Source: JBBIPZ01 sp037442505 [NCBI: Deltaproteobacteria bacterium]
GTDB lineage: Bacteria; CALINM01
DNA length: 64,000 bases
Direction of reading: 5' to 3'
Assembly (NCBI GenBank): GCA_037442505.1
Contig: JBBIPZ010000012.1
Coordinates: 1-64,000 of the forward strand
The notes below the pieces were generated by a model. The model did not search any database, was not told the origin of the DNA, and was given only the letters and a program-made list of their open reading frames with translations. Made by a program: the position numbers and the translations under genes. Shown here one piece after another: positions 96-44,929 of this stretch. Positions within the stretch are counted from its first letter, which is position 1, and every line of letters starts with the position of its first letter.

Positions 96-776
96 TTACT
101 TAGCTTCAACTGTTAGATTTTTGATAGTGGAAAGTAAATCTGAAAAGCGTTCGCCTTGAACGAGGATATGTTCTTTAGCAAGTTTTTCGGCTTTGTCAGC
201 ATCACCATTAGCAATGGCATTTATTATTGCTTCATGTTCTTTCAGTGACGACTCTATTCTACCTCTAACCCTTAACTGCAGTCTTCTATAAGAGGCTAAT
301 CTTTTATGTAGTTGTGATGTTTGCTCAATTAAGAAGTCATTATGACTTGCTCTGTATAAAGCTAAATGAAAAGCTTCATTTTTGTGATAGTAAAGATCTG
401 GATTTTTACATACCTCTTTCTTTTGACATTCCCTGTGTGTGTCTATAAGGTTTTTCAGTTCTTCTTCTGTTATTCTTCTTGCTGCCAATCTTGCACACAT
501 ACCCTCTAACTCAGCCATTACTTCAAACATTTCGTAAAGTCCTTTTGGATCAATGGAGGTTACGATTGCACCTCTTCTTGGCCTAATCTCTACTAATCCT
601 GAGGAGCTTAGTTGAATCAATGCTTCTCTTATTGGTGTTCTTGATACACCAAACATGTTTGCTAACTCGATTTCATCTAATTTCTTTCCTGGAGGAAATG
701 TGCCTGTTGCAATGAGCTCCTCTATTTTCTCTCTGAGCTCGAAAGATAGTTTTGAAGGAGATGTCCGTTTTTTCAT
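96..776 (-). CDS. GntR-family regulator, FCD subfamily (MatR/MdcY-like)
   Basis: This 226-residue DNA-binding repressor or activator has a winged-helix GntR domain at about residues 10-75 (core GVSRTPIREALIQL). An all-helical FCD ligand-binding domain follows at about 80-215, with several His/Asp residues that in this family bind a metal and a small carboxylic acid. The gene is divergent from the TRAP transporter and malonate genes, and the 117-bp gap holds a TGTATACA palindrome typical of FCD operators. FCD regulators often control organic-acid uptake, and MatR controls malonate genes in rhizobia. The inferred role is malonate-responsive control of the island. The family is certain; the ligand is inferred from neighbours. 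Confidence 0.85.
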   Translation of the reverse strand: MKKRTSPSKLSFELREKIEELIATGTFPPGKKLDEIELANMFGVSRTPIREALIQLSSSGLVEIRPRRGAIVTSIDPKGLYEMFEVMAELEGMCARLAARRITEEELKNLIDTHRECQKKEVCKNPDLYYHKNEAFHLALYRASHNDFLIEQTSQLHKRLASYRRLQLRVRGRIESSLKEHEAIINAIANGDADKAEKLAKEHILVQGERFSDLLSTIKNLTVEAK

Positions 777-851: not shown

Positions 852-864
852 TTGTATACACAAA
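851..864 (+). promoter_or_regulatory. Putative GntR/FCD operator
   Basis: The stretch contains TTGTATACACAA with the perfect 8-bp palindrome TGTATACA at 853-860. It lies between the divergent regulator and dctP, at the end of the putative -10 box. It closely resembles the TTGTATACA-type sites reported for FCD regulators, including the MatR operator. Binding here would block transcription of the transporter operon. Confidence 0.5.
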
Positions 865-893: not shown

Positions 894-1922
894 ATGCATA
901 ATTTAAAGGTAAAAATTGGTATTTTGGTAGTGTTAGCTCTAATTTTGGTTGTCTCAAAAGTTAACACTGTTTCATCTAAGCAGCAAAGAGTTATAAAAAT
1001 TTCTCATCAGTTTCCTGCAAGTACTGGTGATAAGGGTGATTTTAGAGACTGACTGTGTCGCAAATTTGCAACAGAGGTTGAGAAAAGAACAAAGGGACAA
1101 CTTAAATTTGAAATCTATCCATCAAGTTCTCTTTTTAAAGCAACATCTCAAATATCGGCAATGAGAAAGGGTGCACTGGATATGGGGCTTATTCCTATAT
1201 CTTATGGCAGTGGAGAAATTTCAGAGGCAAATTTAGGTCTTATGCCTGCCTTGGTTACGAGTTATGAACAGGGCTTGAGATGGAAAGATGCACCAATTGG
1301 CAAAAAATTTGCAGAAATTCTCGCAAAGCACAATATTATAATTCTTACGTGGGTATGGCAGGGTGGTGGAATAGCATCTACTAAGGGTAAGTTAGTAGCA
1401 CCTGAAAATTTTGTGGGTGTGAAGATTCGTGGCGGGAGCAGAGAGATGGATATGATGCTAAAGGAAGCTGGTGCATCGGTAGTTAATATGCCGTCAAGTG
1501 AGATTTATAATGCCATGCAATCAGGTGTTATTGATGCTGCTCTTACATCAAGCACGTCTTTAATAAGCTATAGGTTATATGAGTTTACAAAAAATGTAAC
1601 TACAGCAAGAAAAAAATCTTTCTGGTATATGTTAGAACCTCTTGTAATGTCAAAAAGTCTTTTTGATTCGCTAACCCCGGAGCAGCAAAAGATTGTATTA
1701 GAAGTAGGTGCAAGTCTCGAAAAGTTTGGTATGGAAGAAGCTAAGAAAGATGACCAGAGAATGGCAGAAGTCTATGCAAAAGCTGGTGCTAAAGTTCACG
1801 ATATGGATGAAAAAACCTTTGAAAGGTGGAGAGAGATAGCCAAAAAAACCGCTTATAAAGATTTTATGGCAAAAGTTAAAAATGGCAAAGAGCTTCTTGA
1901 TATGGCACTTAGTGTTAAATAA
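894..1922 (+). pseudogene. dctP: TRAP transporter solute-binding protein, DctP family, with in-frame TGA
   Basis: This is the periplasmic binding subunit of a TRAP carboxylate transporter, 342 codons if read through. The start at 894 follows a strong AAGGAGG (881-887) and encodes a signal peptide (hydrophobic residues 8-21). Codon 53 (1050-1052) is TGA within the conserved stretch GDFRD*LCRKFA, where homologues usually have Arg, so a single CGA-to-TGA change explains it. The rest of the frame is undamaged over 290 codons, with the usual motifs (MRKGALDM, GVKIRGG, NAMQSGVIDAALTS). Possible readings are a recent nonsense mutation, recoding as selenocysteine or another residue, or a sequencing error. 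A small stem-loop (1053-1074) follows the TGA but does not look like a good bacterial SECIS. An internal restart at 1161 would lose the signal peptide. Confidence 0.75.
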
Positions 1923-1970: not shown

Positions 1971-2510
1971 ATGAAAGTAATATCATCTTTTATTAAGAAG
2001 TTTAACACCTTAATGGGATTTGTGTCGGCTATTGTAATAATGATAGTTTCTGGCACCCTTTTTTTTGGAGTGTTTGTTAGATACTTTCTTTCATGGCCTA
2101 CAGATTGGGAGATTGAGCTTAGTGTTATGCTTCTTATAATCTCAACTTTTATGGCTGCGGGTTTTACCCAGATTTCGAGGGGGCATGTTAATATCGAAAT
2201 CATCGATAGCCTGTTGTCAAAAAGGTTAATTAAGTGGCGTATTTTGATATCTGATATTATTTCATTTCTGTTTTGCGGTTTTATAAGCTATAGCAGCTGC
2301 AAGCTTTTTTATGAAGCATTCACCGAGGGTAGAATGAGTGAGTCTTCGTGGGGACCAAAGCTCTGGCCGGTATTTTTGTTTATGGCATTTGGTATGACAA
2401 TGTTAACTATTCAAATAGTTGTCCAACTTTTTGAAGAAAGTATACCGAATGTTTTGAAGAAAGACGTTACTACTGAACATAAAGTTTCTGATGCTGAATT
2501 AATGGAGTAG
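1971..2510 (+). CDS. dctQ: TRAP transporter small membrane subunit, DctQ family
   Basis: A 179-residue inner-membrane protein with four predicted membrane helices (about 12-34, 45-65, 85-107, 127-150), the size and topology of DctQ. It contains the family feature of a tryptophan-rich second segment (SWPTDWEIE). It pairs with DctM to form the Na+- or H+-driven channel that accepts substrate from DctP. The ATG follows an AGAGG ribosome site. The substrate is inferred to be malonate from the downstream enzymes; rhizobial malonate uptake (MatPQM) is also of TRAP type. Confidence 0.9.
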   Translation: MKVISSFIKKFNTLMGFVSAIVIMIVSGTLFFGVFVRYFLSWPTDWEIELSVMLLIISTFMAAGFTQISRGHVNIEIIDSLLSKRLIKWRILISDIISFLFCGFISYSSCKLFYEAFTEGRMSESSWGPKLWPVFLFMAFGMTMLTIQIVVQLFEESIPNVLKKDVTTEHKVSDAELME

Positions 2511-2519
2511 GAGCTTAAA

Positions 2520-3854
2520 ATGAGCACACTCGAGATAGGTATTTTATATACTATTGCAACAGTTTTGATAATGTTTTCTGGTGTTCCCATTGCTTTTGCT
2601 GTTGGAACTGTAGCTTTAATATTTATGTTTGTGTTTATGCCCATGTCACAGGTTTTGATTGTTGCTGAAAACATTTACAGTGAGCTTAATAATTTCACAC
2701 TTCTTACAATACCCCTTTTCATATTTATGGGAGCTTCTATTGGGAAGTCTAAAGCAGGTTCTGACCTTTATAATTCCCTTAACAAATGGCTTTATAAAAT
2801 TCCTGGCGGCTTGGGCGTTGCTAATACAATTGCTTGTTCTATATTTGCAGCAATGTGTGGTTCCTCACCGGCTACCTGTGCAGCTATTGGAAGCTCTGGA
2901 ATACCGGAGATGAGAAAAAGAGGTTATTCTAATGCCCTTGCAACAGGAATTATTGGTGCTGGTGGTACTTTAGGTATTTTAATCCCGCCAAGTTTAACGA
3001 TGATTTTGTATGGTCTTGCAACGGAACAATCTATAGGTAGGCTTTTTATGGCGGGTGTTGGTCCTGGAATTCTTCTTACATTGCTATTTTCAATCTGGGT
3101 AGTAATTAAATACTGGCTTGAAAAGAGGTCAAAAAAGAGTGCTGATAAAAACAATCAGGAGATAATGATTGAAAGATATACTATTAAGGAAAAGTTAGCT
3201 ACCATTCCAAGATTGTTACCATTTTTAGTTCTTATCCTTTTTATTATGTATGCTCTTTACGGTGGCGTTGCTACACCATCTGAGGTTGCAGGGATCGGTG
3301 CTATTGGTGCATTTGTTCTTGTTGCGATAGTTTACAGAACATGGAGATGGAAAGATTTAAAACCCATATTCGCTGGAACGGCTAAGGAATCAAGTATGAT
3401 TATGTTAATAATAGGCATGTCCTTTTTGTTTACCTATGTTATGAGCTATCTTCATATAACACAGGAAGTTGCGGCATGGCTTGTATCATTAAATCTAAGC
3501 AAGTGGCAATTTATTTTCTGGATTAACATTTTGTTACTTTTTCTTGGTTGTTTATTACCACCTGTTGCAATTATTTTGATGGTAATGCCGATTATACTAC
3601 CACCATTGAAGGCTTTGAATATTGATTTGATATGGTTCAGCGCAATTTTAACAGTAAACATGGAAATGGGGCTTATAACACCCCCTATGGGTTTGAATCT
3701 TTTCGTTATAAATGGTGTCGCATCTGATATACCTTTTAAAGACATCATGAAGGGAATTGTTCCTTTTTTAATTATTATGGTTATTGGCATTGTGTTAATG
3801 TGCATTTTCCCTGAAATTGTGATGTGGCTACCAAACAAATATAAAGGAGTATGA
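2520..3854 (+). CDS. dctM: TRAP transporter large membrane subunit, DctM family
   Basis: A 444-residue polytopic permease with about twelve membrane helices and the DctM signatures SSPATCAAIGSSGIPEM and GTLGILIPPS near residues 120-160, plus ITPPMGLNLFV near 385. This subunit forms the ion-coupled translocation path. The ribosome site overlaps the dctQ stop, and the end overlaps the matB start by four bases (ATGA), so translation is coupled. No defects are visible. Confidence 0.93.
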   Translation: MSTLEIGILYTIATVLIMFSGVPIAFAVGTVALIFMFVFMPMSQVLIVAENIYSELNNFTLLTIPLFIFMGASIGKSKAGSDLYNSLNKWLYKIPGGLGVANTIACSIFAAMCGSSPATCAAIGSSGIPEMRKRGYSNALATGIIGAGGTLGILIPPSLTMILYGLATEQSIGRLFMAGVGPGILLTLLFSIWVVIKYWLEKRSKKSADKNNQEIMIERYTIKEKLATIPRLLPFLVLILFIMYALYGGVATPSEVAGIGAIGAFVLVAIVYRTWRWKDLKPIFAGTAKESSMIMLIIGMSFLFTYVMSYLHITQEVAAWLVSLNLSKWQFIFWINILLLFLGCLLPPVAIILMVMPIILPPLKALNIDLIWFSAILTVNMEMGLITPPMGLNLFVINGVASDIPFKDIMKGIVPFLIIMVIGIVLMCIFPEIVMWLPNKYKGV

Positions 3855-5383
3855 AAGTGAGAGAAAATTTATTTAATGTCTTAAGTTCAAGTTTTCCTGT
3901 TGATTCAAATGCACCATGCTTAATCTTGCCTGATGGCAGGATAGTAACATATGTTGAACTTGTAAGAGAATCGGCAAGGATGGCAAATTTGCTTGTAAAT
4001 AAATTCAATGTCGAACCAGGAGATAGGGTGGCTGTGCAGATTAGAAAATCACCCTATGCTATCTTTTTGTATTTTGGGGTTTTAAGAGCTGGAGCTATAT
4101 ATTTGCCGATGAATGATGCTTATCAGAGGCATGAAGTTGAATACTTTTTAAAAGATGCCAGGCCAAAGGTATTTTTCTGTGTGCCTGAAAAAAAGGAAGT
4201 TTCAATTGATATGGCAAAAAATTCCGGCGTTCCGTATGTACAGGGTATTGATGAAAAAGGTACAGGTGAGTTTTTTGATATTTTCTATAAAGAGTCTGAT
4301 AGTTTTGAGACAATCGATACTGATTCAGATGATATTGCTGCAATTTTATACACCTCAGGGACTACAGGAAGACCTAAGGGAGCAATGCTTTCTCATAAAA
4401 ATCTTATTGTAAATGCTAAAACCCTTCATAGTTACTGGGCATTTCAAAAAGGTGATGTGCTTCTTCATATGCTGCCCATATATCATGTTCATGGGCTTTT
4501 TGTAGCAAACCACTGCACTTTGCTAAATGGTAGCCCCATACTTTTTGAGCCCAAATTCGATGTAAAAAGGGCAATAGAGCTGTTGCCAAAAGCAACTGTA
4601 TTTATGGGCGTACCTACTTATTATGTTAGGCTTCTTCTGGATGAAAATTTTACTGCAGATGTTTGTAGAAATATGAGGTTGTTTATTTCTGGATCTGCAC
4701 CACTTTTGCCAGAAACTTTCGAGGAATTTAAGAAAAGAACGGGGCATACAATTCTGGAAAGATATGGCATGACAGAAGGGGGTATGTTTACATCCAATCC
4801 TTACGATGGGTTAAGGAAATCCGGGACAGTGGGATTTCCTCTACCAGGTGTTTCGATAAGAGTTGTAAATGATGAGGGTAAGGAAGCTGGTATAGACGAA
4901 GTTGGCTATATCCAGGTCAAAGGAGAAAATGTTTTTAATGGTTATTGGAGTATGCTAGAAAAAACAAAAGAAGAGTTTACTGAAGATGGTTATTTTAAAA
5001 CTGGTGATATGGGTAAATGGGATAAGGATGGCTATTTATCCATAGTTGGCAGGTCAAAAGACTTAATAATAACTGGTGGACTTAATGTCTATCCAAAAGA
5101 GATAGAAGAGGTGATTGATAAGATTCCAGGGGTTTTTGAGTCTGCAGTTGTTGGATTGCCTCATGCTGATTTTGGTGAGGCTGTAACAGCCTTTGTTGTC
5201 AAAAGAAATGATGATGCGGGGAGAAAACTCTCAGAACAGGAAATAATTGAGACATTGAAGAAAACTATCGCAAATTTTAAAGTCCCCAAAGCAGTTTATT
5301 TTATAGATGAATTACCACGGAACAGTATGGGGAAGGTTCAAAAAAATGTGTTAAGAGAAAAATTTGCAGCCCTGTTCAAATAA
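3851..5383 (+). CDS. matB: Malonyl-CoA synthetase, MatB type (AMP-forming ligase)
   Basis: A 510-residue acyl-adenylate-forming enzyme that would convert malonate, ATP and CoA to malonyl-CoA, AMP and PPi. Seen in order are the phosphate loop YTSGTTGRPKGAM (about 168-180), the MatB-typical stretch ERYGMTEGGMFTSNPYDG (about 303-320), the hinge GRSKDLIITGGLNVYPKE (about 402-420) and the C-terminal catalytic lysine in NSMGKVQK. The TSNPYDG stretch after the A5 motif is characteristic of malonyl-CoA synthetases among AMP ligases. It overlaps dctM and is followed three bases later by mdcD. A general fatty-acid ligase is the main alternative and is less likely given the neighbours. Confidence 0.85.
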   Translation: MKVRENLFNVLSSSFPVDSNAPCLILPDGRIVTYVELVRESARMANLLVNKFNVEPGDRVAVQIRKSPYAIFLYFGVLRAGAIYLPMNDAYQRHEVEYFLKDARPKVFFCVPEKKEVSIDMAKNSGVPYVQGIDEKGTGEFFDIFYKESDSFETIDTDSDDIAAILYTSGTTGRPKGAMLSHKNLIVNAKTLHSYWAFQKGDVLLHMLPIYHVHGLFVANHCTLLNGSPILFEPKFDVKRAIELLPKATVFMGVPTYYVRLLLDENFTADVCRNMRLFISGSAPLLPETFEEFKKRTGHTILERYGMTEGGMFTSNPYDGLRKSGTVGFPLPGVSIRVVNDEGKEAGIDEVGYIQVKGENVFNGYWSMLEKTKEEFTEDGYFKTGDMGKWDKDGYLSIVGRSKDLIITGGLNVYPKEIEEVIDKIPGVFESAVVGLPHADFGEAVTAFVVKRNDDAGRKLSEQEIIETLKKTIANFKVPKAVYFIDELPRNSMGKVQKNVLREKFAALFK

Positions 5384-5386
5384 AAT

Positions 5387-6169
5387 ATGTCTGAGGATTC
5401 TTTTTTCAGTCTAACTGCAAGAGAAAGGGTGTATAGTATCTGTGACGATGATGACTTTTTGGAGATAAATATCACTGTTGATCTAACAAATTCTCATCTG
5501 AAATCACTGGGGCTTATTGTTAGAGAAGATGATGGGGTTATCATTGGGTTGGGTAAAATAGACGATGCAAAAGTAATTTTAATTTCTCAGGATTGCACCT
5601 TTTATGGTGGTTCTGTAGGTGAAATCCACGGTGCTAAGATAAAAGGCATTTTAGACCATTCTCTAAATTCAAAACCAGATGGGGTTATTTTTATAATAGA
5701 TTCTGGTGGTGTTAGGTTACAAGAGGCAAATTCAGGGTTAGTTGCATTATCAGAAATTATAAAGTCCCTTCTCCATATAAGAAACACATGGGTACCAGTA
5801 ATTGCTGTAATTGGTGGCTATTGTGGCGCCTTCGGCGGTATGGGAATTTTGGCAAGACTTTGTAGTGAAATAATAATGACAGAAAAGGGTAGAATGGGTT
5901 TAAGCGGTCCCGAAGTTATAAAAACAGTTAAAGGGGAGGACGAATTTAACTCTAACGATAGGGAACTGATAATAAAAACAGTTGGTGCTTATGCAAGAAA
6001 GGAAATTGGTGAAGTCAAATATGTAGTGAAAGACAGCGTTAAAGTGGTGAGAAATACTATTGTTAAAGTGTTAAGGAAACTTAAAGTCAATACTACAAGT
6101 TTATACAATGAAATTTTTGCTGAACATGAGGAATTAAAAAAACGATTGAAAGTTTACAAAAATGAATAG
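5387..6169 (+). CDS. mdcD: Malonate decarboxylase beta subunit (carboxyltransferase fold)
   Basis: A 260-residue crotonase-fold subunit. The block GGSVGEIHGAKIKG (about 72-85), the stretch DSGGVRLQEANSGL (about 105-118), GGYCGAFGGMGI and GRMGLSGPEVI match biotin-independent malonate decarboxylase beta subunits closely. In characterised systems MdcD and MdcE together decarboxylate malonyl bound to the acyl-carrier subunit MdcC. No MdcA, MdcB, MdcC, MdcG or MdcH is encoded nearby; a malonyl-CoA synthetase sits directly upstream instead. The inferred substrate is therefore malonyl-CoA. The ATG is only three bases after the matB stop, with a weak ribosome site that suggests coupling. Confidence 0.85.
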   Translation: MSEDSFFSLTARERVYSICDDDDFLEINITVDLTNSHLKSLGLIVREDDGVIIGLGKIDDAKVILISQDCTFYGGSVGEIHGAKIKGILDHSLNSKPDGVIFIIDSGGVRLQEANSGLVALSEIIKSLLHIRNTWVPVIAVIGGYCGAFGGMGILARLCSEIIMTEKGRMGLSGPEVIKTVKGEDEFNSNDRELIIKTVGAYARKEIGEVKYVVKDSVKVVRNTIVKVLRKLKVNTTSLYNEIFAEHEELKKRLKVYKNE

Positions 6170-6890
6170 TGAGATACTTTTCAACAAATTATTCGGTATA
6201 GGCAATTATACTATAATTATAGATGGTTACTTTCTCTATGGTGATGCAATTGCTGGGGGAGAGAATTTAAAGATTATTGGAACGTGCAAGAGCGTTGCCA
6301 TAGATTCAAAACTGGCTCTTCGAATTTCAGAAAAGGTTTTGGAAACCATCAAAGAGGATAAAGGTAGAGAAACAGATAAAAGGCCTATAGTTTTTCTCGT
6401 TGATACACAGGGGCATAAACTATCACGATTTGAAGAGTATATAGGCATAAATGGTTACTTTGCCCATATGGCAAAATGTATATTTCTTGCAAGTGCATCG
6501 GGACATAAAACTATCTCTATCGTTCATGGCGAGGCAGTTAGTGGTTGTTTTTTAGCCTTTGCGATGATGGCAGATAAAGTTTGTGCTTTAAAAGATGCTA
6601 AAATATGTGTTATGGATTTAAAAGCAATGTCACGTATAACAAAAATTGAATATGAAAAACTTGTTGAGCTTTCAAAGATTTCTCCGATTTTTGCCCCCGG
6701 TGTTTATAATTACTGGCTGATGGGTGGTGTGCATGAGATATGGGAAGAGGATGAAAACTGGCAGGAAAATCTTTTAAAATCAATTCAGAATCTGGGAAAA
6801 ATAGACAGTAGATACAATTTAGGCTTTCAAAGAGGCGGAAGGATTGTTGCCAAATCGGTAATTGAACAAATAAAAAATTATAAGGCTTAA
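6162..6890 (+). CDS. mdcE: Malonate decarboxylase gamma subunit
   Basis: A 242-residue partner of MdcD. It shows GYFLYGDAIAGGENLKIIG near the start, the signature LVDTQGHKLSRFEEYIGIN (about 80-98), GEAVSGCFLAFAMMAD (about 124-139) and VMDLKAMSRITKI, the pattern of MdcE proteins. The subunit forms the thioester-binding half of the decarboxylase. Its start overlaps the mdcD stop by eight bases, so the two are translationally coupled in the expected 1:1 pairing. It is shorter than many MdcE proteins, but no core block is missing. Confidence 0.85.
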   Translation: MNSEILFNKLFGIGNYTIIIDGYFLYGDAIAGGENLKIIGTCKSVAIDSKLALRISEKVLETIKEDKGRETDKRPIVFLVDTQGHKLSRFEEYIGINGYFAHMAKCIFLASASGHKTISIVHGEAVSGCFLAFAMMADKVCALKDAKICVMDLKAMSRITKIEYEKLVELSKISPIFAPGVYNYWLMGGVHEIWEEDENWQENLLKSIQNLGKIDSRYNLGFQRGGRIVAKSVIEQIKNYKA

Positions 6891-6894
6891 GAAG

Positions 6895-7692
6895 TTGGTT
6901 TACTTTCTTTTATACATTCTTATTGGATGCTTTGTTGGTTTTGTTGCTGGGCTTTTTGGTGTGGGTGGTGGAACAACTCAGGTTCCATTGCTGCTAATGA
7001 TTTTCAAAGCTCAGGGATTTCCTGATAAATATGTAATGCATTTGGCTCTTGGCACATCTATGGCTTCCATTTTTTTTACTTCCCTATCCAGTATGAGGGC
7101 ACACTATTTAAAAGGTGCTGTAAGATGGGATATTTTTAGGGGTATGGCTCCAGGGTTACTTTTTGGCACATTTATAGGTTCCTTTTTTGCTGGAAGTTTG
7201 CCATCAAAAAGCTTAAAAATATTTTTTGTTTTTATAATGTATTTTGCGGCATTCCAGATAATTTTTGAATTTAAACCTAAGGGACATACAAAATTGCCTG
7301 GGAGGTTGGAACTTTTTATTGTTGGACTGCTTATTGGAGGAATATCTTCCCTTGCTGCTGCTGGTGGTGGATTTCTTACTGTGCCATTTATGCTTTTTTG
7401 TAATGTCATTATTTATCAGGCTGTTGGTACTGCAGCCGCATTGGGTTTTCCTATCGCACTGGCTGGTTTTTTGGGTTATGTAATAAGTGGGTTGAAGGTT
7501 AGTGGTATTCCCCACTATACCTTAGGATATGTGTATCTTCCTGCACTAATAAGCATTGTTTCAATGAGTATTTTCACAGCACCAAAGGGAGCAAATTTAG
7601 CGCATAGACTACCAGTTAAAAAGCTAAGAAGGCTTTTTGGTCTATTTTTAGCCTTACTCGCAACAAAGATACTTTTGGGTATAATTGGCTAA
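6895..7692 (+). CDS. TSUP (TauE/SafE) family membrane permease
   Basis: A 265-residue membrane protein with the two-fold repeated TSUP signature: AGLFGVGGGTTQVPLLLM (about 19-36) and a second GGISSLAAAGGGFLTVPFM (about 149-167). About eight membrane helices are expected. TSUP proteins carry small anions such as sulfite, sulfonates or carboxylates. Here it may export or import a carboxylate of malonate metabolism, but the substrate cannot be read from sequence. The TTG start is four bases after mdcE. A diverged copy of its C-terminus recurs 120 bases downstream (7787-7828). Confidence 0.8.
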   Translation: MVYFLLYILIGCFVGFVAGLFGVGGGTTQVPLLLMIFKAQGFPDKYVMHLALGTSMASIFFTSLSSMRAHYLKGAVRWDIFRGMAPGLLFGTFIGSFFAGSLPSKSLKIFFVFIMYFAAFQIIFEFKPKGHTKLPGRLELFIVGLLIGGISSLAAAGGGFLTVPFMLFCNVIIYQAVGTAAALGFPIALAGFLGYVISGLKVSGIPHYTLGYVYLPALISIVSMSIFTAPKGANLAHRLPVKKLRRLFGLFLALLATKILLGIIG

Positions 7693-35460: not shown

Positions 35461-37440
35461 ATGGAAGATGCAGTATTGTATAGGTACAAAAAGGCGGCAA
35501 AGGCATTTGAGAAAAAGCTTTGTTGCCCAACCGACTATAATCAAGAATTTTTGAGAAACATTCCGCAAGAAGTCCTCGAAAAAGACTATGGATGTGGTGA
35601 TCCTTCAAAGTATGTTAGGAATGGGGAAACGGTACTTGATCTTGGTTCAGGAGCCGGGAAACTTTGTTACCTAATTTCTCAGGTTGTAGGTCCCGATGGT
35701 AAAGTGATTGGTGTAGATATGAATGATGAAATGTTAAATATTGCAAGAAAATATAGACTGGAATTTGGTAAAAAGCTTGGCTATTTTAATGTAGATTTTT
35801 TTAAAGCAAGAATTCAAAATCTAAAACTAAATCTTGAAAAGGTTGATGAATACTTAACCCTACACCCCATCAAAAATTCTGAGGATTTAACGCTTTTTAA
35901 TGCATACTGTGAAAAGTTAGAAAAAGATGAAACTCTCATTCCCGATAACTTTGTAGATGTTGTTGTTTCTAACTGTGTATTAAATCTTGTCAAGACTGAT
36001 GAAAAAAACAAGCTTTTTCAAGAGATATACAGAGTTTTAAAATATGGTGGTAGGGCTGTAATAAGCGACATCGTTTCAGATAAAGACATCCCACAGTATT
36101 TACAAGACGACCCTGAGTTGTGGTCAGGCTGTATATCAGGTGCTTTTAGGGAAGATTTGTTTTTAAAGGCATTTGAAAATGCAGGCTTTTATGGTGTAGA
36201 GATTGTAAAGTGGGATGATAAGCCTTGGCAGATTGTTGATGATATTGAGTTTCGTTCGGTGACGGTAATAGCAAGAAAGAGCAGCAAAGAAAACAATATT
36301 AGAAAAAGAGAAACAGTAATATACAAAGGACCATATAAAAAGGTAGAAGATGATGCTGGAAATATTTATGAGAGAGGAAAAAGAATTGCTGTTAGCAAAA
36401 CCATCTTCGAACGGTTATCTCGGGAACCATATGATACAGATTTTATTTTAAGTCATACTGGTGCAGACGTTTTATATACAACAGAAAGCAAGGTTGTGCA
36501 ATCTTGTTGTGATAGTTATCAACCTTTCTCAGAAAAAATTATGCTTATGGGAAAAAAGCTTAAAAAAACTAATATCTCGACACTGCAGATTAATCTGGGG
36601 AATTTATGCAATCAGGCATGTTTGCACTGCCACATTGATGGTGCTCCTTCTGGCAAGCTAATGAAAAGGGATATAATGGAGAAAGTGATTAGCTTTATCA
36701 AACAGAATAAAAATCTTATTGTTGATATTACTGGTGGAGCCCCCGAACTTCATCCCGACCTGCCATATCTTATAGAAAATATTTCAAAATATGCAAAAGA
36801 AATCTACGTAAGAACCAATCTAACCGCTTTAGAGAAAAATATTGGATTGATTAACGTCTTCAAAAATTATAACGTAACATTATTTGCATCACTGCCTTTT
36901 ACCTCGAAACAAGAGACAGATTACGTAAGGGGCGATGGAGTTTTTGAAACTTCTATAAGAATGTTACAGTTACTTAACAAAAATGGTTTTGGGACTAACA
37001 TCCTTTTACATATTGTACACAATCCATCGGGTTTTAGTCTGCCAGATTTACAGCCGGTTATTGAAGAGAAATATCGGCAGTGTTTGCTAAAAGATTTTGG
37101 AATAGTTTTTAACAAACTGTTTGTGTTAAACAATATGCCCATAGGAAGGTTTAAAAAACTTCTCGAAACAAACAATAAATATGACGAGTATTTGAAAATG
37201 GTTTACTCAAGCTTCAATCCCGATACGCTAAATAATCTGATGTGTCGAAACGTCCTTAACATCGGATATGATGGCAGGCTGTATGACTGTGACTTTAACA
37301 ATGCTCTAAATATGGAAAGAATCGAAAAGCTTGATGATATTAAGATAGAAACATTGATTTCAAGTGATATAATTGTTTCGGAACACTGTTATGTTTGCAC
37401 AGCGATGAAAGGCTCGGGATGCTATGGAAGTGTCGTATAA
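35461..37440 (+). CDS. arsS: Fused ArsM-type methyltransferase and ArsS-type radical SAM enzyme
   Basis: A 659-residue two-domain protein. Residues 1 to about 355 are an ArsM-like SAM methyltransferase: VLDLGSGAGKLCYLISQVVG (58-77 region), GVDMNDEM, and the arsenite-binding-type cysteines in VVSNCVLNL and SGCISGAF, with a terminal QSCC. Residues about 360-659 are a radical SAM protein with Cys383, Cys387, Cys390 (CNQACLHC) and a cysteine-rich end (DCDF, HCYVCTAMKGSGC) like ArsS, which joins a 5'-deoxyadenosyl group to dimethylarsinous acid. Usually these are separate genes. The fusion implies that methylated arsenic is passed within one chain. Arsenic as substrate is inferred from family knowledge. 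Confidence 0.85.
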   Translation: MEDAVLYRYKKAAKAFEKKLCCPTDYNQEFLRNIPQEVLEKDYGCGDPSKYVRNGETVLDLGSGAGKLCYLISQVVGPDGKVIGVDMNDEMLNIARKYRLEFGKKLGYFNVDFFKARIQNLKLNLEKVDEYLTLHPIKNSEDLTLFNAYCEKLEKDETLIPDNFVDVVVSNCVLNLVKTDEKNKLFQEIYRVLKYGGRAVISDIVSDKDIPQYLQDDPELWSGCISGAFREDLFLKAFENAGFYGVEIVKWDDKPWQIVDDIEFRSVTVIARKSSKENNIRKRETVIYKGPYKKVEDDAGNIYERGKRIAVSKTIFERLSREPYDTDFILSHTGADVLYTTESKVVQSCCDSYQPFSEKIMLMGKKLKKTNISTLQINLGNLCNQACLHCHIDGAPSGKLMKRDIMEKVISFIKQNKNLIVDITGGAPELHPDLPYLIENISKYAKEIYVRTNLTALEKNIGLINVFKNYNVTLFASLPFTSKQETDYVRGDGVFETSIRMLQLLNKNGFGTNILLHIVHNPSGFSLPDLQPVIEEKYRQCLLKDFGIVFNKLFVLNNMPIGRFKKLLETNNKYDEYLKMVYSSFNPDTLNNLMCRNVLNIGYDGRLYDCDFNNALNMERIEKLDDIKIETLISSDIIVSEHCYVCTAMKGSGCYGSVV

Positions 37441-37557: not shown

Positions 37558-38082
37558 CTAAAGTTTATTTACCTTTTCTAAAAAGGTTACGAGATGGCTT
37601 ATTATATCCATAGGTGTTGGAGGACAGCCGGGAATATAAATGTCTACAGGTATGATGTCTTTTAAGCCATTTGTGACTGCATAGCTGTCTTTGAATATGC
37701 CACCATCTATTGTGCAGTCACCACAGGCTATAACTAACTTTGGTGATGGTGTTGCTTTATACGTTTTTATTAAAGCTAACTGCATCTGTCTGGATATCGG
37801 TCCTGTTACAAGTATTGCATCAGCATGTCTTGGAGATGCTACAAAGTCTATACCATATCTCTGGATATCATAAAAGGGATTTGTAAGTGCTGTACATTCC
37901 CATTCACAGGCGTTGCATGAACCGGCATCTACCTGTCTGATCCTGAATGATCTCCCGTAGATTTTTAAAATTTTCTCTCTTAGTTCTTCAAGTTTTTGAA
38001 TTTCTTCTTCGTAAAGCCTGGCTTCCGGTATCATTTCGCATGGCTTTTTCTGTATAAAGTTTGTAAGTATCTTTTTTATCAT
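37558..38082 (-). CDS. hyfI: Hyf/NuoB-like small subunit of a membrane redox-like complex
   Basis: A 174-residue PSST/NuoB-family protein. The [4Fe-4S] ligands are present as Cys56, Cys59 (GSCNACEWEC), Cys123 in ACGDC and Cys153 in PGCPPTP, so the proximal N2-type cluster is likely retained. It is the last gene of the six-gene minus-strand operon. Sequence is closer to HycG/HyfI than to true NuoB. It would dock on the large subunit at the membrane arm. Confidence 0.88.
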   Translation of the reverse strand: MIKKILTNFIQKKPCEMIPEARLYEEEIQKLEELREKILKIYGRSFRIRQVDAGSCNACEWECTALTNPFYDIQRYGIDFVASPRHADAILVTGPISRQMQLALIKTYKATPSPKLVIACGDCTIDGGIFKDSYAVTNGLKDIIPVDIYIPGCPPTPMDIISHLVTFLEKVNKL

Positions 38083-38090
38083 TTTATCAC

Positions 38091-39659
38091 CTACATATCA
38101 CAACCTGAGTATGATAGATTGAAGCTTTTGTTACATAAGGGGAAATCAGGAACAATATTCCCATGAACAGCATAGGGCATAAGTGGCCAATTACAGTAGG
38201 AAGATGAACGTACCTTTACGCGCTCCACACCCCCATTTTCTCCCGATTTAACATAGTAAAACACCGAGCCTCTTGGAGACTCAACATAACCAACACCCTC
38301 AGAATGGGATTCTATGTGAATCTCCTTAGCTTCAATGTTTTTAGGATAATCTTTTTCAATAAGCTGTTTAATAATTTTTATTGATTCATCAGCCTCTCTG
38401 GCTCTAACCATCATTCTTGCAAGAACATCACCTTTTCCCTCAGTAATCAGATCAAATTTTAATCTATCGTAAAGTAGATAAGGGTGAGCAAATCTTATAT
38501 CATCGGCAATCTTAGATGACCTTGCAGCTATACCAGTAGCACCGAGTTTCAAGGCTATGTCTGTTGCGAGTTTGCCCGTATTTTCTAAACGCTCTACGTG
38601 AGAAACAGTATTAAGCAGTAAATCTAAGAACTTTCCTTTTTCTTTTTCTAACTCTTTCAGGAAGTTTAAAATAATTTCTTTATTTTCAAGCACATCTTTA
38701 TTAACGCCACCAATTTTGTTAATACCACGTAAGTATCTGTGCCCTGTTAAACATTGATTTAGTCTCATCAGTTTCTCTTTTATATATGCCCCTGCCGCAT
38801 TACCAATTTGCAAACCTGTTCCCGCGCACATATTCCCGATATCACCTATGTGGTTATATAATCTTTCTAATTCCAAAAGCAGTGTCCTTATAGCCTTTGC
38901 TCTTTCAGGTATATCTATCTTAGCCAAATCTTCTACTGCCATGCAATAGGCTGTAGAGTGGGAAAAAGATGAAGTTCCGGAAATTCTCTCAGACAGCAAA
39001 ACGCCTCTTTTGAACCCCAATTTTTCAAACTGTTTTTCAACGCCTTTGTGTGTATAGAAAAGCCTTGCCTCTAAAAAGAAAATCGTCTCTCCAACAGCAC
39101 TAAACCTGAAGTGCCCCGGCTCTATTATGCCAGCATGTACAGGGCCAACAGGTATTTCATATACACCTTCGCCTTCAACTTTGAAAAATTTGTATGGTGA
39201 TTTTATTTTTTGCCCCTCTCCCCAATCTTCTAACTCTTCCCTTGCTATCTGCCAGTCTTTCCTTAAAGGATAGGAGTTTTCAGGAAAACTTTCGTGAAAA
39301 ACTAACCTTCTTGGGTCTGGATGTCCAACCATCTCTATACCGAACATATCTTTGATTTCTCTTTCGTACCAGTGTGCAGCGGGTACAAAGGGCGTTATTG
39401 ACTGGTATTTTTCTCCTTCTTTTAAGCTAAATTTGATGATATATAAATTTTTATCCCCGGGAATTGAAAATATGCATCTTACCCAGAAAGCGCCATTTAG
39501 GTGCCTTTCATCAGTTGCAAACATAACCCTTAATATAGCTTTTTTCTGTTCGTGTATGTATCTTGAAATCGCTACAAAATCATCTTTTTTTATCTCAAAG
39601 ACTTTTTTGCCCTTTTCTTCTTTGTAAGAAACACATTTTTCTTTCACCATCTCCATCAT
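38091..39659 (-). CDS. hyfG: Hyf-like large subunit (NuoC-NuoD fusion) lacking Ni-Fe ligands
   Basis: A 522-residue protein: a NuoC-like part (about 1-150) fused to a NuoD/HycE-like part (about 165-522), as in HycE/HyfG. The first Ni-Fe motif RxCGxC is replaced by RISGTSSF (Ser227 and Ser230). The second, DPCxxC, is replaced by NLSYSG at 514-519. All four metal cysteines are thus missing, so it cannot hold the hydrogenase Ni-Fe site. This matches the group called Ehr (energy-converting hydrogenase-related) complexes. The EIPVGPVHAGIIEPGHFRF block that faces the quinone or active-site cavity is conserved. Overlaps the hyfF stop by four bases. Confidence 0.9.
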   Translation of the reverse strand: MMEMVKEKCVSYKEEKGKKVFEIKKDDFVAISRYIHEQKKAILRVMFATDERHLNGAFWVRCIFSIPGDKNLYIIKFSLKEGEKYQSITPFVPAAHWYEREIKDMFGIEMVGHPDPRRLVFHESFPENSYPLRKDWQIAREELEDWGEGQKIKSPYKFFKVEGEGVYEIPVGPVHAGIIEPGHFRFSAVGETIFFLEARLFYTHKGVEKQFEKLGFKRGVLLSERISGTSSFSHSTAYCMAVEDLAKIDIPERAKAIRTLLLELERLYNHIGDIGNMCAGTGLQIGNAAGAYIKEKLMRLNQCLTGHRYLRGINKIGGVNKDVLENKEIILNFLKELEKEKGKFLDLLLNTVSHVERLENTGKLATDIALKLGATGIAARSSKIADDIRFAHPYLLYDRLKFDLITEGKGDVLARMMVRAREADESIKIIKQLIEKDYPKNIEAKEIHIESHSEGVGYVESPRGSVFYYVKSGENGGVERVKVRSSSYCNWPLMPYAVHGNIVPDFPLCNKSFNLSYSGCDM

Positions 39660-41134
39660 CTGACTCCCAAAATTTCTACTGAGTTTCTAATAAGCATACT
39701 GATGGTTTCTGGAACATAGATGCCAAGTAAAATAGCAAGAATTGCTAATAAAATCATAACCACATAGGAAAGTATTTCGTCGAATGTGATAGAATGAGTA
39801 TCGTTAAAGGTTATATCTGCTTTGCAATCGCTTTTGAAGAGCATTTTACCAAAATTAGAAAGTAAACCAAAAAATACAAAAATTACAAAAAACAGGAATA
39901 AAGCCAGAGGCAACCATTTACCAGCATCAGCAGCAGCTTTGAGTATTGTAAACTCACTGATAAAAACGTTTAAAGGTGGTGAGCCAGCAAGGGACAGAAT
40001 GCCTATAAATGTTAACACTCCAAGTACAGGCATTTTTGAGATTACATCACATACCCTGTCAATGCTTGTGGAACCAAAACGAGATTGAATCTTGCCTGAG
40101 ACAAAGAACATAAGTGGTTTGGCAATTGCATGATTTAGCACATGCAGCAAAGCACCATAAGCAGCTAATTTACCACCTATGCCAAATCCAAAGGAAATGA
40201 TACCCATATGCTCAATGCTCGAGTAAGCAAGCAGTCTTTTAAAGTTGCCCTGAACCATTAAGAAAATTGAGGCTATAGCTATCGAGAATAAACCAAAGAC
40301 CAACAATAGGGTGTTGCTAAACTCGCTACCGACAGATGGTTGAACAATTGCCAGAAATCTTAAAACTCCATAAAAGGCAGTATTTAAAAGTATTCCTGAG
40401 AGTAAAGCGCTTACTGGAGTAGGTGCCTGACTGTGGGCATCGGGTAGCCAGCTGTGGAGTGGCGCAAGGCCTGCCTTGGTTCCATATCCAACAATTATGA
40501 ATATAAAAGCTAACTTCATCGTTACAGGATTGAACTGTTTTGCATATTCTTTTAAAACAACAAAACTAAGTGAGCCTGACTCACCAAGTACGTTTGTTGC
40601 TCCATAATAGGCTATAAATGTTCCAAGAAGGGCAAAGGTAATTCCTACTGTGCATAATATTATGTACTTCCAAGCAGCCTCTATAGCTAACTCCCTCTTT
40701 GTAAAGCCAAGACCGATAAGCGGGGCGGATATGATAGTAGTTGCTTCTATGGCAATCCACATAATTGCAATATTTTCGGTGGTAACGACAAGAATCATCG
40801 ATGTTACAAACATATTCAAAAGTAGATAAAACCTTTGAACATATTTTTTGTCAGTAAGCCCAGACGAAAGCTCATGCCCTAAATATTCTATGGAGTATGC
40901 TGTTGACATCATTGATAGAAAAACTATAACGCATAAGATATATGAAGATAGGCTATCAAGATAGAATATTCCCTCTCTTATTGCATTGTTGTTTATTATT
41001 TGTGAACAAAGTTTTGCAGTCAGAATAGATGTAATAATCATTCCGATAAGACTTAGATAGCCATTTAACTTTGGCTTTGGAATAAAAAAACATAATAGTC
41101 CAGTTACAATAGGTATCAAAAGTATCGCTAACAT
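39656..41134 (-). CDS. hyfF: HyfF-like proton-channel subunit (NuoL/M/N family)
   Basis: A 492-residue antiporter-like membrane subunit with about 14 helices. It has the HSWLPDAHSQAPTPVSALLSG block (about 225-245) and the conserved Lys/Glu of ion-translocating subunits, plus AYSSIEHMGIISFGFG. It is one of two such subunits in this operon and would move H+ or Na+. A terminal membrane helix follows a loop at about 440-455. Confidence 0.9.
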   Translation of the reverse strand: MLAILLIPIVTGLLCFFIPKPKLNGYLSLIGMIITSILTAKLCSQIINNNAIREGIFYLDSLSSYILCVIVFLSMMSTAYSIEYLGHELSSGLTDKKYVQRFYLLLNMFVTSMILVVTTENIAIMWIAIEATTIISAPLIGLGFTKRELAIEAAWKYIILCTVGITFALLGTFIAYYGATNVLGESGSLSFVVLKEYAKQFNPVTMKLAFIFIIVGYGTKAGLAPLHSWLPDAHSQAPTPVSALLSGILLNTAFYGVLRFLAIVQPSVGSEFSNTLLLVFGLFSIAIASIFLMVQGNFKRLLAYSSIEHMGIISFGFGIGGKLAAYGALLHVLNHAIAKPLMFFVSGKIQSRFGSTSIDRVCDVISKMPVLGVLTFIGILSLAGSPPLNVFISEFTILKAAADAGKWLPLALFLFFVIFVFFGLLSNFGKMLFKSDCKADITFNDTHSITFDEILSYVVMILLAILAILLGIYVPETISMLIRNSVEILGVR

Positions 41135-41140
41135 TTCATC

Positions 41141-41800
41141 TTATCCCTTAAGTTTGGTAAGCTGATCCAGATCTGTTGTAGAAAATAATCTTTTTATTTG
41201 TATTGCAAAAACACCAAGGATTATTACACCCATTAACATATCAAAAAACACACCTAATTCTATAATCAAAGGCATACCGTAGGTTAGAGAAAAACCCGCA
41301 AGAAAAAGCCCATTTTCCATAAATAAAAGTCCAATAACCTGTGTAATAGCCTTTCTTCTCGAAATCATAACAAAAAGGCTTATAAGAATAACCGCAACAG
41401 ATATTTGTAAAACGTTTTTAGATAATCCTGTCACGTAAACGCCTTTAGAAATAGCGGAATAAACAATTGCAATAAGTATCCCGGAGATTACTAACGAAAG
41501 AGAGTTACTAACAAATGGCTCTACATCATGTGTTACTTGCATCTTTTTTACAATGTTGCTTATAAATAAAGGTATTACAAAGCATTTAACTATAAAATTT
41601 AAAAGGGCAGCAAAGTAAAAGTGGGATTCACCTTTAACCACTGCAACGGAGACAATCAACAAAGTAAGAAACAGGGAGTTAAAAAAATAAGCCTTAATGC
41701 AAGACTCGAGCCTCTTTAAACTATTCATAGATATCGCTGTAAGAAGTATTCCTACTGATAAAAAGTCAATCAAAGATGCAAAATCTATCAAATCTCTCAT
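41141..41800 (-). CDS. hyfE: HyfE-like membrane subunit (NuoK-like half)
   Basis: A 219-residue protein with about seven membrane helices and the NuoK-like C-terminal stretch GLLFMENGLFLAGFSL (about 157-172) with the conserved buried Glu. Size and position between HyfF and HyfC agree with HyfE/HycC-type partners. Weakly conserved, so the call relies on context as well as on the NuoK motif. Confidence 0.8.
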   Translation of the reverse strand: MRDLIDFASLIDFLSVGILLTAISMNSLKRLESCIKAYFFNSLFLTLLIVSVAVVKGESHFYFAALLNFIVKCFVIPLFISNIVKKMQVTHDVEPFVSNSLSLVISGILIAIVYSAISKGVYVTGLSKNVLQISVAVILISLFVMISRRKAITQVIGLLFMENGLFLAGFSLTYGMPLIIELGVFFDMLMGVIILGVFAIQIKRLFSTTDLDQLTKLKG

Positions 41801-42718
41801 CTATTTCCCCAGCATCAAATAAGTCAAAAGCGATACAAAGGCAAGAACAAACCCACCCCCAAGTAGCGAAGGGAGCTGAAAAAACCTCATCTTAGCCCTT
41901 GAAGACTCAATTAAAGCCATCGTAAAGCCGATGACCAGCATCTTAATTGAATAAACGATAAAAGCCTTTGTTAAATGTATCATATCAAAAGATGTTGCAA
42001 CCCCAAAGGGTAGGAATATATCAGCAAGTATAGTAAATAGAAGCATCTGCTTTATATAGTGTGCATACTCCATCATCGCAAGATACCTTCCCGAATACTC
42101 TAAAATCATCCCCTCATGAATCATTGTTAATTCTAAATGTGTATCGGGATTATCTACTGGAATTCTACCGGTTTCAGCAATAATCGCCACCATAAAGGCA
42201 GAAAAAGCGAGAACCTTAGATGGAGTAAGTATAGGATTGTCAATATTTACAATGTCTGCAAGGTTAGTGGAACCAGAAGGGATAGCTGCAGTAAATAGAC
42301 ATAACATCATCATTGGTTCCACAAGGGTTGAAACCGTCATTTCTCTGCTGCTTCCTTCACCACCAAAGGCTGTCCCGGCGTCAAGCCCAGCCAAAGCCAT
42401 AAAAAATCTTGCTAAAGCAAAGGTATAAACGATAGCTATGACGTCTCCAAAATAATAGAAATTGCTTGCAGACGTAATAACAGGCACTAAAAAACAAACA
42501 GTTATTACAGAGGCGAGAACAATGTAAGGTGTAATCTTGAATATAACCGAAGCAGTATTTGATATAACCATGTCTTTATTAAAAAGCCTGATTAAATCAC
42601 AATATGGTTGAACAATTGATGCACCTTTCCTGCCCTGCATCAAAGCCTTCACCTTCTTTATAAATCCCTGTAACAAAGGCGCAAACAATAAAATAATCAA
42701 AATCTGAAGCTTTTCCAC
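41801..42718 (-). CDS. hyfC: HyfC/HycD-like membrane anchor (NuoH family)
   Basis: A 305-residue NuoH-family subunit. It has GRKGASIVQPYCDLIRLFNKD (described at about 29-48), the Glu-rich loop AETGRIPVDNPDTHLELTMIHE around residues 180-202, and EYSGRYLAMMEYA, all typical of HycD/HyfC. The loop links the soluble arm to the membrane channel. GTG start overlapping the hyfB stop. Motifs are complete. Confidence 0.9.
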   Translation of the reverse strand: MEKLQILIILLFAPLLQGFIKKVKALMQGRKGASIVQPYCDLIRLFNKDMVISNTASVIFKITPYIVLASVITVCFLVPVITSASNFYYFGDVIAIVYTFALARFFMALAGLDAGTAFGGEGSSREMTVSTLVEPMMMLCLFTAAIPSGSTNLADIVNIDNPILTPSKVLAFSAFMVAIIAETGRIPVDNPDTHLELTMIHEGMILEYSGRYLAMMEYAHYIKQMLLFTILADIFLPFGVATSFDMIHLTKAFIVYSIKMLVIGFTMALIESSRAKMRFFQLPSLLGGGFVLAFVSLLTYLMLGK

Positions 42719-42721
42719 CCT

Positions 42722-44689: not shown

Positions 44690-44929
44690 AAAATAGTAGT
44701 CCTTTATAAAATTATTAGTCAAGTTAATTTTTGTTAATTTGTGGCAACTTTTACAATTCATTTTCATTTTTGATAGAGTTTAGGTGCTTAGGAGATTCTT
44801 AGCGTAAATTTAGAATAACATAGTTTTAGGCTTACAATGACAGATGAAAATTGCCCAAAATGGCAATCTTACGACAGCTATGGTTTAATTCAAGAATTTA
44901 GCCAAAAATTTTTGTGATTTTATGTTATA

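What the first reader, a model, noticed from the sequence alone, without database searches (positions are those of the whole stretch)
3851..6890. Hybrid malonate route: MatB plus Mdc beta/gamma without acyl-carrier machinery
Classical malonate decarboxylase uses MdcA, MdcC and the cofactor enzymes MdcB/MdcG/MdcH, while the CoA route uses MatB with MatA. Here MatB is directly joined to MdcD and MdcE, and no MatA or other Mdc gene is seen in the island. The likely reading is that the MdcDE pair decarboxylates malonyl-CoA itself, since the natural ACP prosthetic group resembles CoA. This would be a third, simpler pathway.
Basis: partly seen in the sequence, partly recalled or inferred. Interest (0 to 1): 0.7.

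Follow-up and report, generated by a model that had tools for sequence, protein, structure and literature searches.

The report
Malonate pathway without its carrier protein
A bacterium seems to have stripped a known malonate-degrading machine down to its two-subunit decarboxylase core and fed it ordinary malonyl-CoA made by a companion enzyme, which would give a side activity so far seen only in the test tube a real job in a cell.

Summary
In detail: an intact, tightly packed run dctM-matB-mdcD-mdcE-tauE lies behind a malonate-type GntR gene and operator, and no mdcA, mdcC, mdcB, mdcG, mdcH, matA or biotin subunit is found in the 64 kb. Five genomes of the Geobacter class carry dctM-matB-mdcACDEGB (mdcH in view in four); the window has that order with exactly the ACP modules missing. 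Window MdcD nests inside ACP-dependent MdcDs on a very long branch, breaks 20 of 78 near-invariant positions (median of others 1) and scores closer to a CoA-type decarboxylase family than eight relatives; MdcE breaks 1 of 20. Malonyl-CoA decarboxylation by MdcDE in vitro is already published. Every fetched MdcD/E locus keeps mdcA or mdcC beside it, except two cut before the neighbouring gene, so the window is unique here. Not shown: enzyme activity, and absence of mdc genes or matA elsewhere, because no whole genome is held. dctP carries an in-frame stop. New variant of a known kind.

The parts
96..776 (-). GntR/FCD regulator, malonate type (MdcY-like by context)
   Evidence: Pfam GntR+FCD; 52-58% identical to the GntR genes of TRAP-mdc loci where one was found, in the 20 loci printed
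852..861 (.). putative operator TTGTATACAC between gntR and dctP
   Evidence: 14 of 16 homologous stretches before dctP have a site within 1 mismatch of TTGTATACAA; PMC4494728 (passage) lists MdcY among regulators whose sites have GT and AC 2 nt apart
894..1922 (+). dctP, TRAP binding protein, interrupted by an in-frame TGA at 1050-1052
   Evidence: translation of 777-1200; codon and frame checked; the part from 1161 matches DctP and is up to 72% identical to DctP of mdc operons
1971..2510 (+). dctQ, small TRAP membrane subunit
   Evidence: Pfam DctQ
2520..3854 (+). dctM, large TRAP permease
   Evidence: TIGR00786 370.8 bits; 71% identical to DctM of a Dechloromonas mdc operon, L013
3851..5383 (+). 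matB, malonyl-CoA synthetase
   Evidence: PRK07514 768 bits; best solved matches are MatB 4gxq/4fuq; 61-64% identical to MatB inside five mdc operons of the Geobacter class
5387..6169 (+). mdcD, decarboxylase beta subunit, C-terminally short and strongly remodelled
   Evidence: PRK07189 271 bits; AlphaFold mean pLDDT 84, best fold match Pseudomonas MdcD 5vit; 20 of 78 near-invariant columns changed
5912..5998 (+). segment of mdcD for residues 176-204 (lid region, my reading), window GPEVIKTVKGED where relatives have GPEVIE
   Evidence: 9 of 18 conserved columns changed here against 11 of 59 elsewhere
6162..6890 (+). mdcE, decarboxylase gamma subunit
   Evidence: Pfam MdcE 171 bits; AlphaFold mean pLDDT 93, best fold match MdcE 5vj1
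6414..6416 (+). MdcE codon 85 (His), where 84 of 86 other MdcE have Gln
   Evidence: corresponds to Gln100 of Pseudomonas MdcE by the alignment with a 16-residue numbering offset that I inferred from the Gln-x-Tyr and Ser positions
6895..7692 (+). TauE/SafE family membrane protein at the operon end, as in several mdc loci
   Evidence: Pfam TauE 172.6 bits; about 63% identical to TauE of Azonexaceae mdc loci L010 and L013

Best explanation
The operon encodes an ACP-free malonate catabolic route. Malonate is taken up (TRAP system and/or TauE), MatB converts malonate + ATP + CoA to malonyl-CoA, and the MdcD-MdcE pair acts directly on malonyl-CoA as a two-subunit decarboxylase, giving acetyl-CoA + CO2. 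It arose from a complete mdc operon that already contained matB, by loss of mdcA-mdcC (transferase and carrier) and mdcG-B-H (carrier maturation and priming), with adaptive change in MdcD, the subunit that holds the CoA-like part of the substrate. Shown: gene content, order, intactness, nesting within ACP-type MdcD, and change concentrated in MdcD. From the literature: MdcDE of other species decarboxylates malonyl-CoA in vitro. Inferred: the reaction here, the history, and absence of the other mdc genes and of matA from the rest of the genome.
For: (1) No MdcA/C/B/G/H, MatA or Mad component in 64 kb. (2) Same frame of malonate genes as bona fide mdc operons: gntR, operator, dctPQM, tauE. (3) Five genomes of the Geobacter class have dctM-matB-mdcA-C-D-E-G-B; mdcH follows in four, the fifth contig (L190) ends inside mdcB; whole dctPQM is in view in three. 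Removing the ACP blocks gives the window order. Window MatB groups with these five and one plasmid MatB at 100/99. (4) MdcD lies in a 15-row set (SH-aLRT 98) of ACP-linked MdcD with end branch 2.76, median 0.29. Without outgroup, the window's end branch and the median by the program's tables are MdcD 4.17 and 0.29, MdcE 1.19 and 0.27, DctM 0.62 and 0.13, GntR 0.83 and 0.12, TauE 0.42 and 0.07, DctP 0.31 and 0.10. Among 31 TRAP-mdc loci MdcD identity is never under 49.8% in the 423 of 465 pairs that fell into bins; the window has at most 47% in the 20 of 31 loci printed. (5) Conserved-site breaks: MdcD 20 of 78 (median 1, next 11 and 7); MdcE 1 of 20. (6) Residue 179 is Lys as in propionyl/methylmalonyl-CoA-type carboxyltransferases (K or R in 14 of 14), against Glu in all 144 MdcD with a letter there; residue 184 is Glu as in 12 of 14 of those, mostly V or I in MdcD. 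mmdA score 93.6 bits against 52.6-79.7 in eight full-operon MdcD. (7) MdcD V109, G151, R169 are kept, and MdcE Ser127. (8) Pseudomonas and, as cited there, Acinetobacter MdcDE decarboxylate malonyl-CoA in vitro (PMC5534430).
Against: No assay. No whole genome. Only one example: 84 of 84, 20 of 21, 42 of 42 and 12 of 13 loci inspected keep mdcA or mdcC next to mdcD (the two exceptions are cut before the neighbouring gene). The malonyl-CoA decarboxylase family (PF05292, MatA type) occurs in 3 of 10 mdc-bearing genomes searched, so an unlinked matA that serves MatB is possible here too. dctP carries an in-frame stop. MdcE is not relaxed: it keeps the C-terminal RGGR motif, in the part that I equate with the Pseudomonas tail contacting MdcA. 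Lys179 is not a clean CoA mark: E. coli AccD, which also uses a CoA thioester, has Glu there. His85 replaces the Gln whose Q100E change cost Pseudomonas MdcDE about tenfold activity, although one complete operon (L031) also has His. The changed MdcD segments are among the less confident parts of the model (pLDDT about 59-70 for residues 31-50, 71-80, 171-190).
Confidence: 0.66

Rival explanations
1. The missing partners lie elsewhere in the genome or just left of the window: either mdcA, mdcC and the maturation genes, with MatB only supplying malonyl-CoA for priming, or an unlinked matA that decarboxylates the malonyl-CoA made by MatB.
For: No whole genome is held; the window begins 95 bases beyond gntR; five mdc operons do contain matB; MdcE keeps its C-terminal motif; 3 of 10 mdc-bearing genomes have a PF05292 gene.
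Against: Every fetched MdcD/E locus whose neighbouring genes are visible has mdcA/mdcC adjacent. Unlinked partners would not explain why MdcD broke 20 near-invariant sites.
Confidence: 0.15
2. The operon is a decaying remnant: the ACP genes were lost, MdcD drifted, and the route no longer works.
For: In-frame stop in dctP; very long MdcD branch; Gln to His in the MdcE active site.
Against: matB, mdcD, mdcE, dctQ, dctM, tauE and gntR are intact frames. A branch of 3 to 4 changes per column without a stop or frameshift, kept catalytic residues and models that fold like the Pseudomonas subunits argue for selection. MdcE is hardly changed at conserved sites.
Confidence: 0.1
3. MdcDE works on another acyl-CoA (for instance methylmalonyl-CoA) or as the carboxyltransferase of a biotin-dependent decarboxylase whose other parts lie elsewhere.
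For: MdcD scores closer to mmdA than eight relatives do; the subunits of the Mad-type cluster on a Rhodobacter capsulatus plasmid are homologous (L116).
Against: No MadB or biotin carrier in the window; MdcD groups with biotin-independent TRAP-type subunits and not with L116; transporter, regulator and operator are those of malonate mdc operons.
Confidence: 0.09

Closest known systems
Biotin-independent malonate decarboxylase (Mdc; Klebsiella, Pseudomonas, Acinetobacter)
   Same: MdcD-MdcE decarboxylase core, same fold (5vip/5vit/5vj1), and the operon frame, regulator and transporter of TRAP-linked members
   Different: No MdcA, MdcC, MdcB, MdcG or MdcH in the window; MatB in their place; MdcD remodelled and shortened (260 aa against 291-318 in 83 of 89 homologues; five rows are fused or overlong and one of 249 aa was not looked into)
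Mat pathway (MatB malonyl-CoA synthetase + MatA malonyl-CoA decarboxylase)
   Same: MatB and the chemistry malonate to malonyl-CoA to acetyl-CoA
   Different: The decarboxylase in the operon is MdcDE (crotonase fold, two subunits), not MatA/MCD (Pfam PF05292)
Hybrid operons of the Geobacter class, dctM-matB-mdcACDEGB(H) (L017/L195, L189-L192)
   Same: matB directly behind dctM and before the mdc genes; MatB 61-64% identical
   Different: They keep mdcA, mdcC and the maturation genes
Biotin-dependent malonate decarboxylase (MAD, Malonomonas type; here Rhodobacter capsulatus plasmid L116)
   Same: Homologous carboxyltransferase pair
   Different: No biotin carrier, MadB or ACP in the window

Membership tests
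Mdc malonate decarboxylase | MdcD and MdcE catalytic subunits | tested here: met
   TIGR03133 and TIGR03134 scores fall below their curated cut-offs, PRK07189 and Pfam MdcE above theirs
Mdc malonate decarboxylase | MdcA transferase and MdcC acyl carrier protein in the operon | tested here: not met
   tblastn, none in 64 kb; present in every other fetched locus whose neighbours are visible
Mdc malonate decarboxylase | MdcB, MdcG, MdcH for the prosthetic group and priming | tested here: not met
   none in 64 kb
Mdc malonate decarboxylase | the same genes elsewhere in the genome | not testable with these tools
   no whole genome held
Mat pathway | MatB malonyl-CoA synthetase | tested here: met
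   PRK07514 768 bits, tree with MatB
Mat pathway | MatA malonyl-CoA decarboxylase (MCD) | tested here: not met
   no tblastn match in 64 kb; rest of genome not testable, and 3 of 10 other mdc-bearing genomes have the family
MAD biotin-dependent decarboxylase | MadB and biotin carrier | tested here: not met
   none in 64 kb
Malonyl-CoA decarboxylase (as a function) | decarboxylates free malonyl-CoA | not testable with these tools
   needs an assay; published for Pseudomonas and, as cited there, Acinetobacter MdcDE

The most novel reading that the evidence does not exclude
MdcDE has become a free-standing two-subunit malonyl-CoA decarboxylase, a kind of MCD unrelated to MatA/MLYCD, evolved by shedding the acyl carrier protein, its transferase and their helper genes after matB joined the operon, with the MdcD lid rebuilt from the phosphoribosyl-dephospho-CoA arm to free CoA and towards the sequence of propionyl/methylmalonyl-CoA carboxyltransferases.
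Probability: 0.5. Interest if true: 0.7.

Novelty: new variant of a known kind. Interest (0 to 1): 0.57.

Why it matters
[quoted passage not shown] This operon is a natural case in which that activity would be the only one left. It also offers a traceable route, full mdc, then mdc with matB, then matB-mdcDE, for how an ACP-bound enzyme can be freed onto CoA, and a compact three-gene cassette for malonate use.

Tried and rejected
The organism's own group could not be reached or named: handles exist only for groups met through loci.

Lys179 as a plain marker of CoA use: weakened, because E. coli AccD has Glu there. An ancestral, never-ACP-dependent MdcD: rejected, because the window nests inside ACP-type MdcD. 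That tree is a quick one, warns of long branches, and put AccD, meant as outgroup, inside the MdcD part, so the exact sister of the window is unsure. Change in MdcE as a sign of a lost MdcA interface: not borne out; two other MdcE rows (L082, L001) have longer branches than the window and rows L004 and L118 break 13 and 12 conserved sites. Chimeric assembly: rejected on uniform GC/GC3 and tightly packed genes. The segment 176-204 for the enrichment test was chosen after seeing the data (Fisher p 0.013). Rows L004, L028, L068, L082 and L118 were left out of the MdcD conserved-site count as fused or overlong frames; the MdcE count left out none of its 86 other rows, so the two sets differ. One search printed 20 of the 31 loci for the window.

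In checking this report I corrected the MdcD end branch to the program's 4.17 (my script read 3.26 from the rooted newick), added, and lowered the main confidence from 0.68 to 0.66 and raised the first rival from 0.13 to 0.15.

Literature: the listings showed no paper on matB-mdcDE without mdcA/mdcC. Of PMC5534430 I read the outline and sections 4, 6, 10, 12, 13, 14; of PMC12303837, PMC8307300, PMC5845375 and PMC4494728 only found passages. The 2012 Suvorova paper on malonate regulation (PMC3370838) is not held, so whether it already notes such operons is unknown; a DOI tried from memory was not held either.
Full report
What is there. The window holds, from left to right, a GntR/FCD regulator on the minus strand (96-776), a TRAP transporter (dctP 894-1922 with an in-frame TGA at 1050-1052, dctQ 1971-2510, dctM 2520-3854), matB (3851-5383), mdcD (5387-6169), mdcE (6162-6890) and a TauE-type membrane protein (6895-7692); all but the regulator are on the plus strand, and from dctM on they overlap or lie within 4 bases. 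MatB scores 768 bits with NCBIfam malonyl-CoA synthase and its best solved matches are MatB. MdcD and MdcE match their families strongly but fall below the TIGR cut-offs. GC and GC3 of the operon genes are like those of seven other window genes.

What is missing. tblastn with MdcA, MdcC, MdcB, MdcG and MdcH of a complete plasmid operon, MatA from a mat operon, and MadB, MadL, MadM, a biotin carrier and further Mdc proteins from the Rhodobacter capsulatus plasmid found nothing in the 64 kb at E<0.01 apart from matB, mdcD and mdcE themselves. The rest of the genome is not held. As a warning, a search of ten mdc-bearing genomes for PF05292 (MatA-type malonyl-CoA decarboxylase) rang in 3 of 10, so an unlinked matA is possible.

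How unusual. In one search, 84 of 84 loci (80 from the genome scan, 4 from plasmids) have mdcA and/or mdcC beside mdcD. Five more plasmid loci that I opened also have mdcA (and 55 for L118). Surveys by taxon found MdcE or MdcD relatives in 14 of 277, 2 of 44, 36 of 398 (30 fetched), 2 of 247, 9 of 193, 1 of 145 and 11 of 121 genomes. In one search, 297 of 395 genomes passed E<=0.001, but only one, at 234 bits against 52 for the next, looks like a true MdcE; I take the rest for carboxyltransferase cross-matches. Of the loci fetched, 20 of 21, 42 of 42 and 12 of 13 show mdcA/mdcC; the two exceptions (L139, L207) end before the neighbouring gene. Several genomes appear in more than one call. No second matB-mdcDE locus without a carrier was found, so the window stands alone here, with the caveat that its own group was out of reach.

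Where it came from. The operon frame (gntR, operator, dctPQM, tauE) is that of TRAP-linked mdc operons: DctP and DctM are up to 72% and 71% identical to those of Azonexaceae mdc operons, and a TTGTATACAC site sits before dctP as in L010, L013 and L016. A site within one mismatch of TTGTATACAA occurs in 14 of 16 such stretches (mostly about 0.4-0.6 kb, two of about 2 kb), against 8 in the whole 64 kb window, this one included. PMC4494728 (a found passage) lists MdcY among regulators whose sites have GT and AC two bases apart, which fits. Of ten enlarged regions, five, all of the class of the Geobacter genome G001, carry dctM-matB-mdcA-mdcC-mdcD-mdcE-mdcG-mdcB; mdcH follows in four and the fifth contig (L190) ends inside mdcB; whole dctPQM is in view in three and gntR in two. 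The other five lack matB there (L197 has a 36% identical gene some kilobases away). One Acidiferrobacteraceae locus (L069) has matB after mdcH. Window MatB is 61-64% identical to the five and groups with them and one plasmid MatB at 100/99. The simplest history is loss of mdcAC and mdcGBH from such a hybrid operon; this is inferred.

What changed. MdcD lies inside ACP-type, TRAP-linked MdcD (SH-aLRT 98 for the 15-row set) on an end branch of 2.76 against a median of 0.29 (quick method, long-branch warnings, AccD misplaced). Without outgroup the window's end branch is 4.17 for MdcD by the program's table (3.26 in the newick as rooted; the next longest row is 1.5), 1.19 for MdcE, where L082 and L001 are longer, 0.83 for GntR, 0.62 for DctM, 0.42 for TauE and 0.31 for DctP. 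The change is thus concentrated in MdcD. Among 31 TRAP-mdc loci, 423 of 465 pairs fell into bins by DctM identity; bin means of MdcD identity are 57.8-60.5% and no pair is under 49.8%; the window reaches at most 47% in the 20 loci printed, while its MdcE (39-47%) lies at the low edge of the others (minimum 40.0%). At columns conserved in at least 95% of 84 homologues, MdcD deviates at 20 of 78, the next rows at 11 and 7, median 1; MdcE deviates at 1 of 20, others at up to 13, median 0. Nine of the 20 fall among the 18 conserved columns of residues 176-204, 11 among the other 59. These residues follow the pyrophosphate-contacting Arg (Pseudomonas Arg180, by the alignment) and overlap the predicted helix 175-181; that this is the alpha-6 lid of the Pseudomonas paper is my reading. 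Position 179 is Glu in all 144 MdcD with a letter there, Lys or Arg in 14 of 14 propionyl/methylmalonyl-CoA-type carboxyltransferases, Lys in the window; position 184 is Glu in the window and in 12 of 14 of those, mostly V or I in MdcD. E. coli AccD has Glu at 179, so this is a likeness to one carboxyltransferase family, not proof of CoA use. In line with it, window MdcD scores 93.6 bits with mmdA against 52.6-79.7 for eight complete-operon MdcD. The MdcD C-terminal extension is lost (260 aa; 83 of 89 homologues have 291-318, five are fused or overlong, one of 249 aa was not looked into). In Pseudomonas the C-terminal MdcD helices clash with a carboxyltransferase-like 2:2 assembly.

What was kept. 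Val109, Gly151 and Arg169 of MdcD (Pseudomonas Val121, Gly162, Arg180) are present, as is MdcE Ser127 (Ser142). MdcE His85 stands where Pseudomonas has Gln100; of 86 homologues 84 have Gln, one (L031) His, one (L116) Asn. The C-terminal RGGR motif of MdcE is kept although the Pseudomonas tail, which I take for the same segment, contacts MdcA; this goes against a simple loss of that interface. AlphaFold models have mean pLDDT 84 and 93 and match the Pseudomonas subunits best; in MdcD the segments around residues 31-50, 71-80 and 171-190 are less sure.

How it most likely works. MatB: malonate + ATP + CoA to malonyl-CoA + AMP + PPi. MdcDE: malonyl-CoA to acetyl-CoA + CO2. The second step is published in vitro for Pseudomonas MdcDE (kcat 2.3 per s, K0.5 100 uM; weaker than human MCD, 14-fold in kcat) and, as cited there, for Acinetobacter (PMC5534430). 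From established biochemistry, not from a call: the classical route yields acetate, which then needs ATP-dependent activation, so the ATP cost per acetyl-CoA is about the same; the gain is dispensing with a carrier and its maturation genes.

Verdict. Observation confirmed; interpretation likely (0.66) but untested by assay or whole genome. A new variant of a known kind.

Noticed in passing
window 1050-1052: In-frame TGA in dctP after 52 codons; the frame behind it continues with good similarity. Real loss, strain variant or sequencing error cannot be told apart.
   Followed up: partly
L195 (L017), L189, L190, L191, L192: mdc operons of the Geobacter class with matB between dctM and mdcA; no paper on this was seen in the listings.
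   Followed up: yes
L036 6473-16700: A Geobacteraceae contig with one MdcA/C/D/E set and, behind it, a MadB gene followed by a second MdcA/C/D/E set, so biotin-independent and Mad-type genes appear side by side.
   Followed up: partly
window 37558-44767 (-): Cluster that by eye looks like a membrane-bound hydrogenase-4/Ech-type complex (ion-pumping subunits, large and small subunit); not tested.
   Followed up: no
window 35461-37440: A 659-aa ORF that by eye joins a methyltransferase and a radical-SAM part, perhaps an ArsM/ArsS-like fusion; not tested.
   Followed up: no
window 47176-50538: A 1120-aa alpha-amylase-like protein with only 22-26% identity over 34-48% of its length to the eight plasmid records that match it.
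   Followed up: partly
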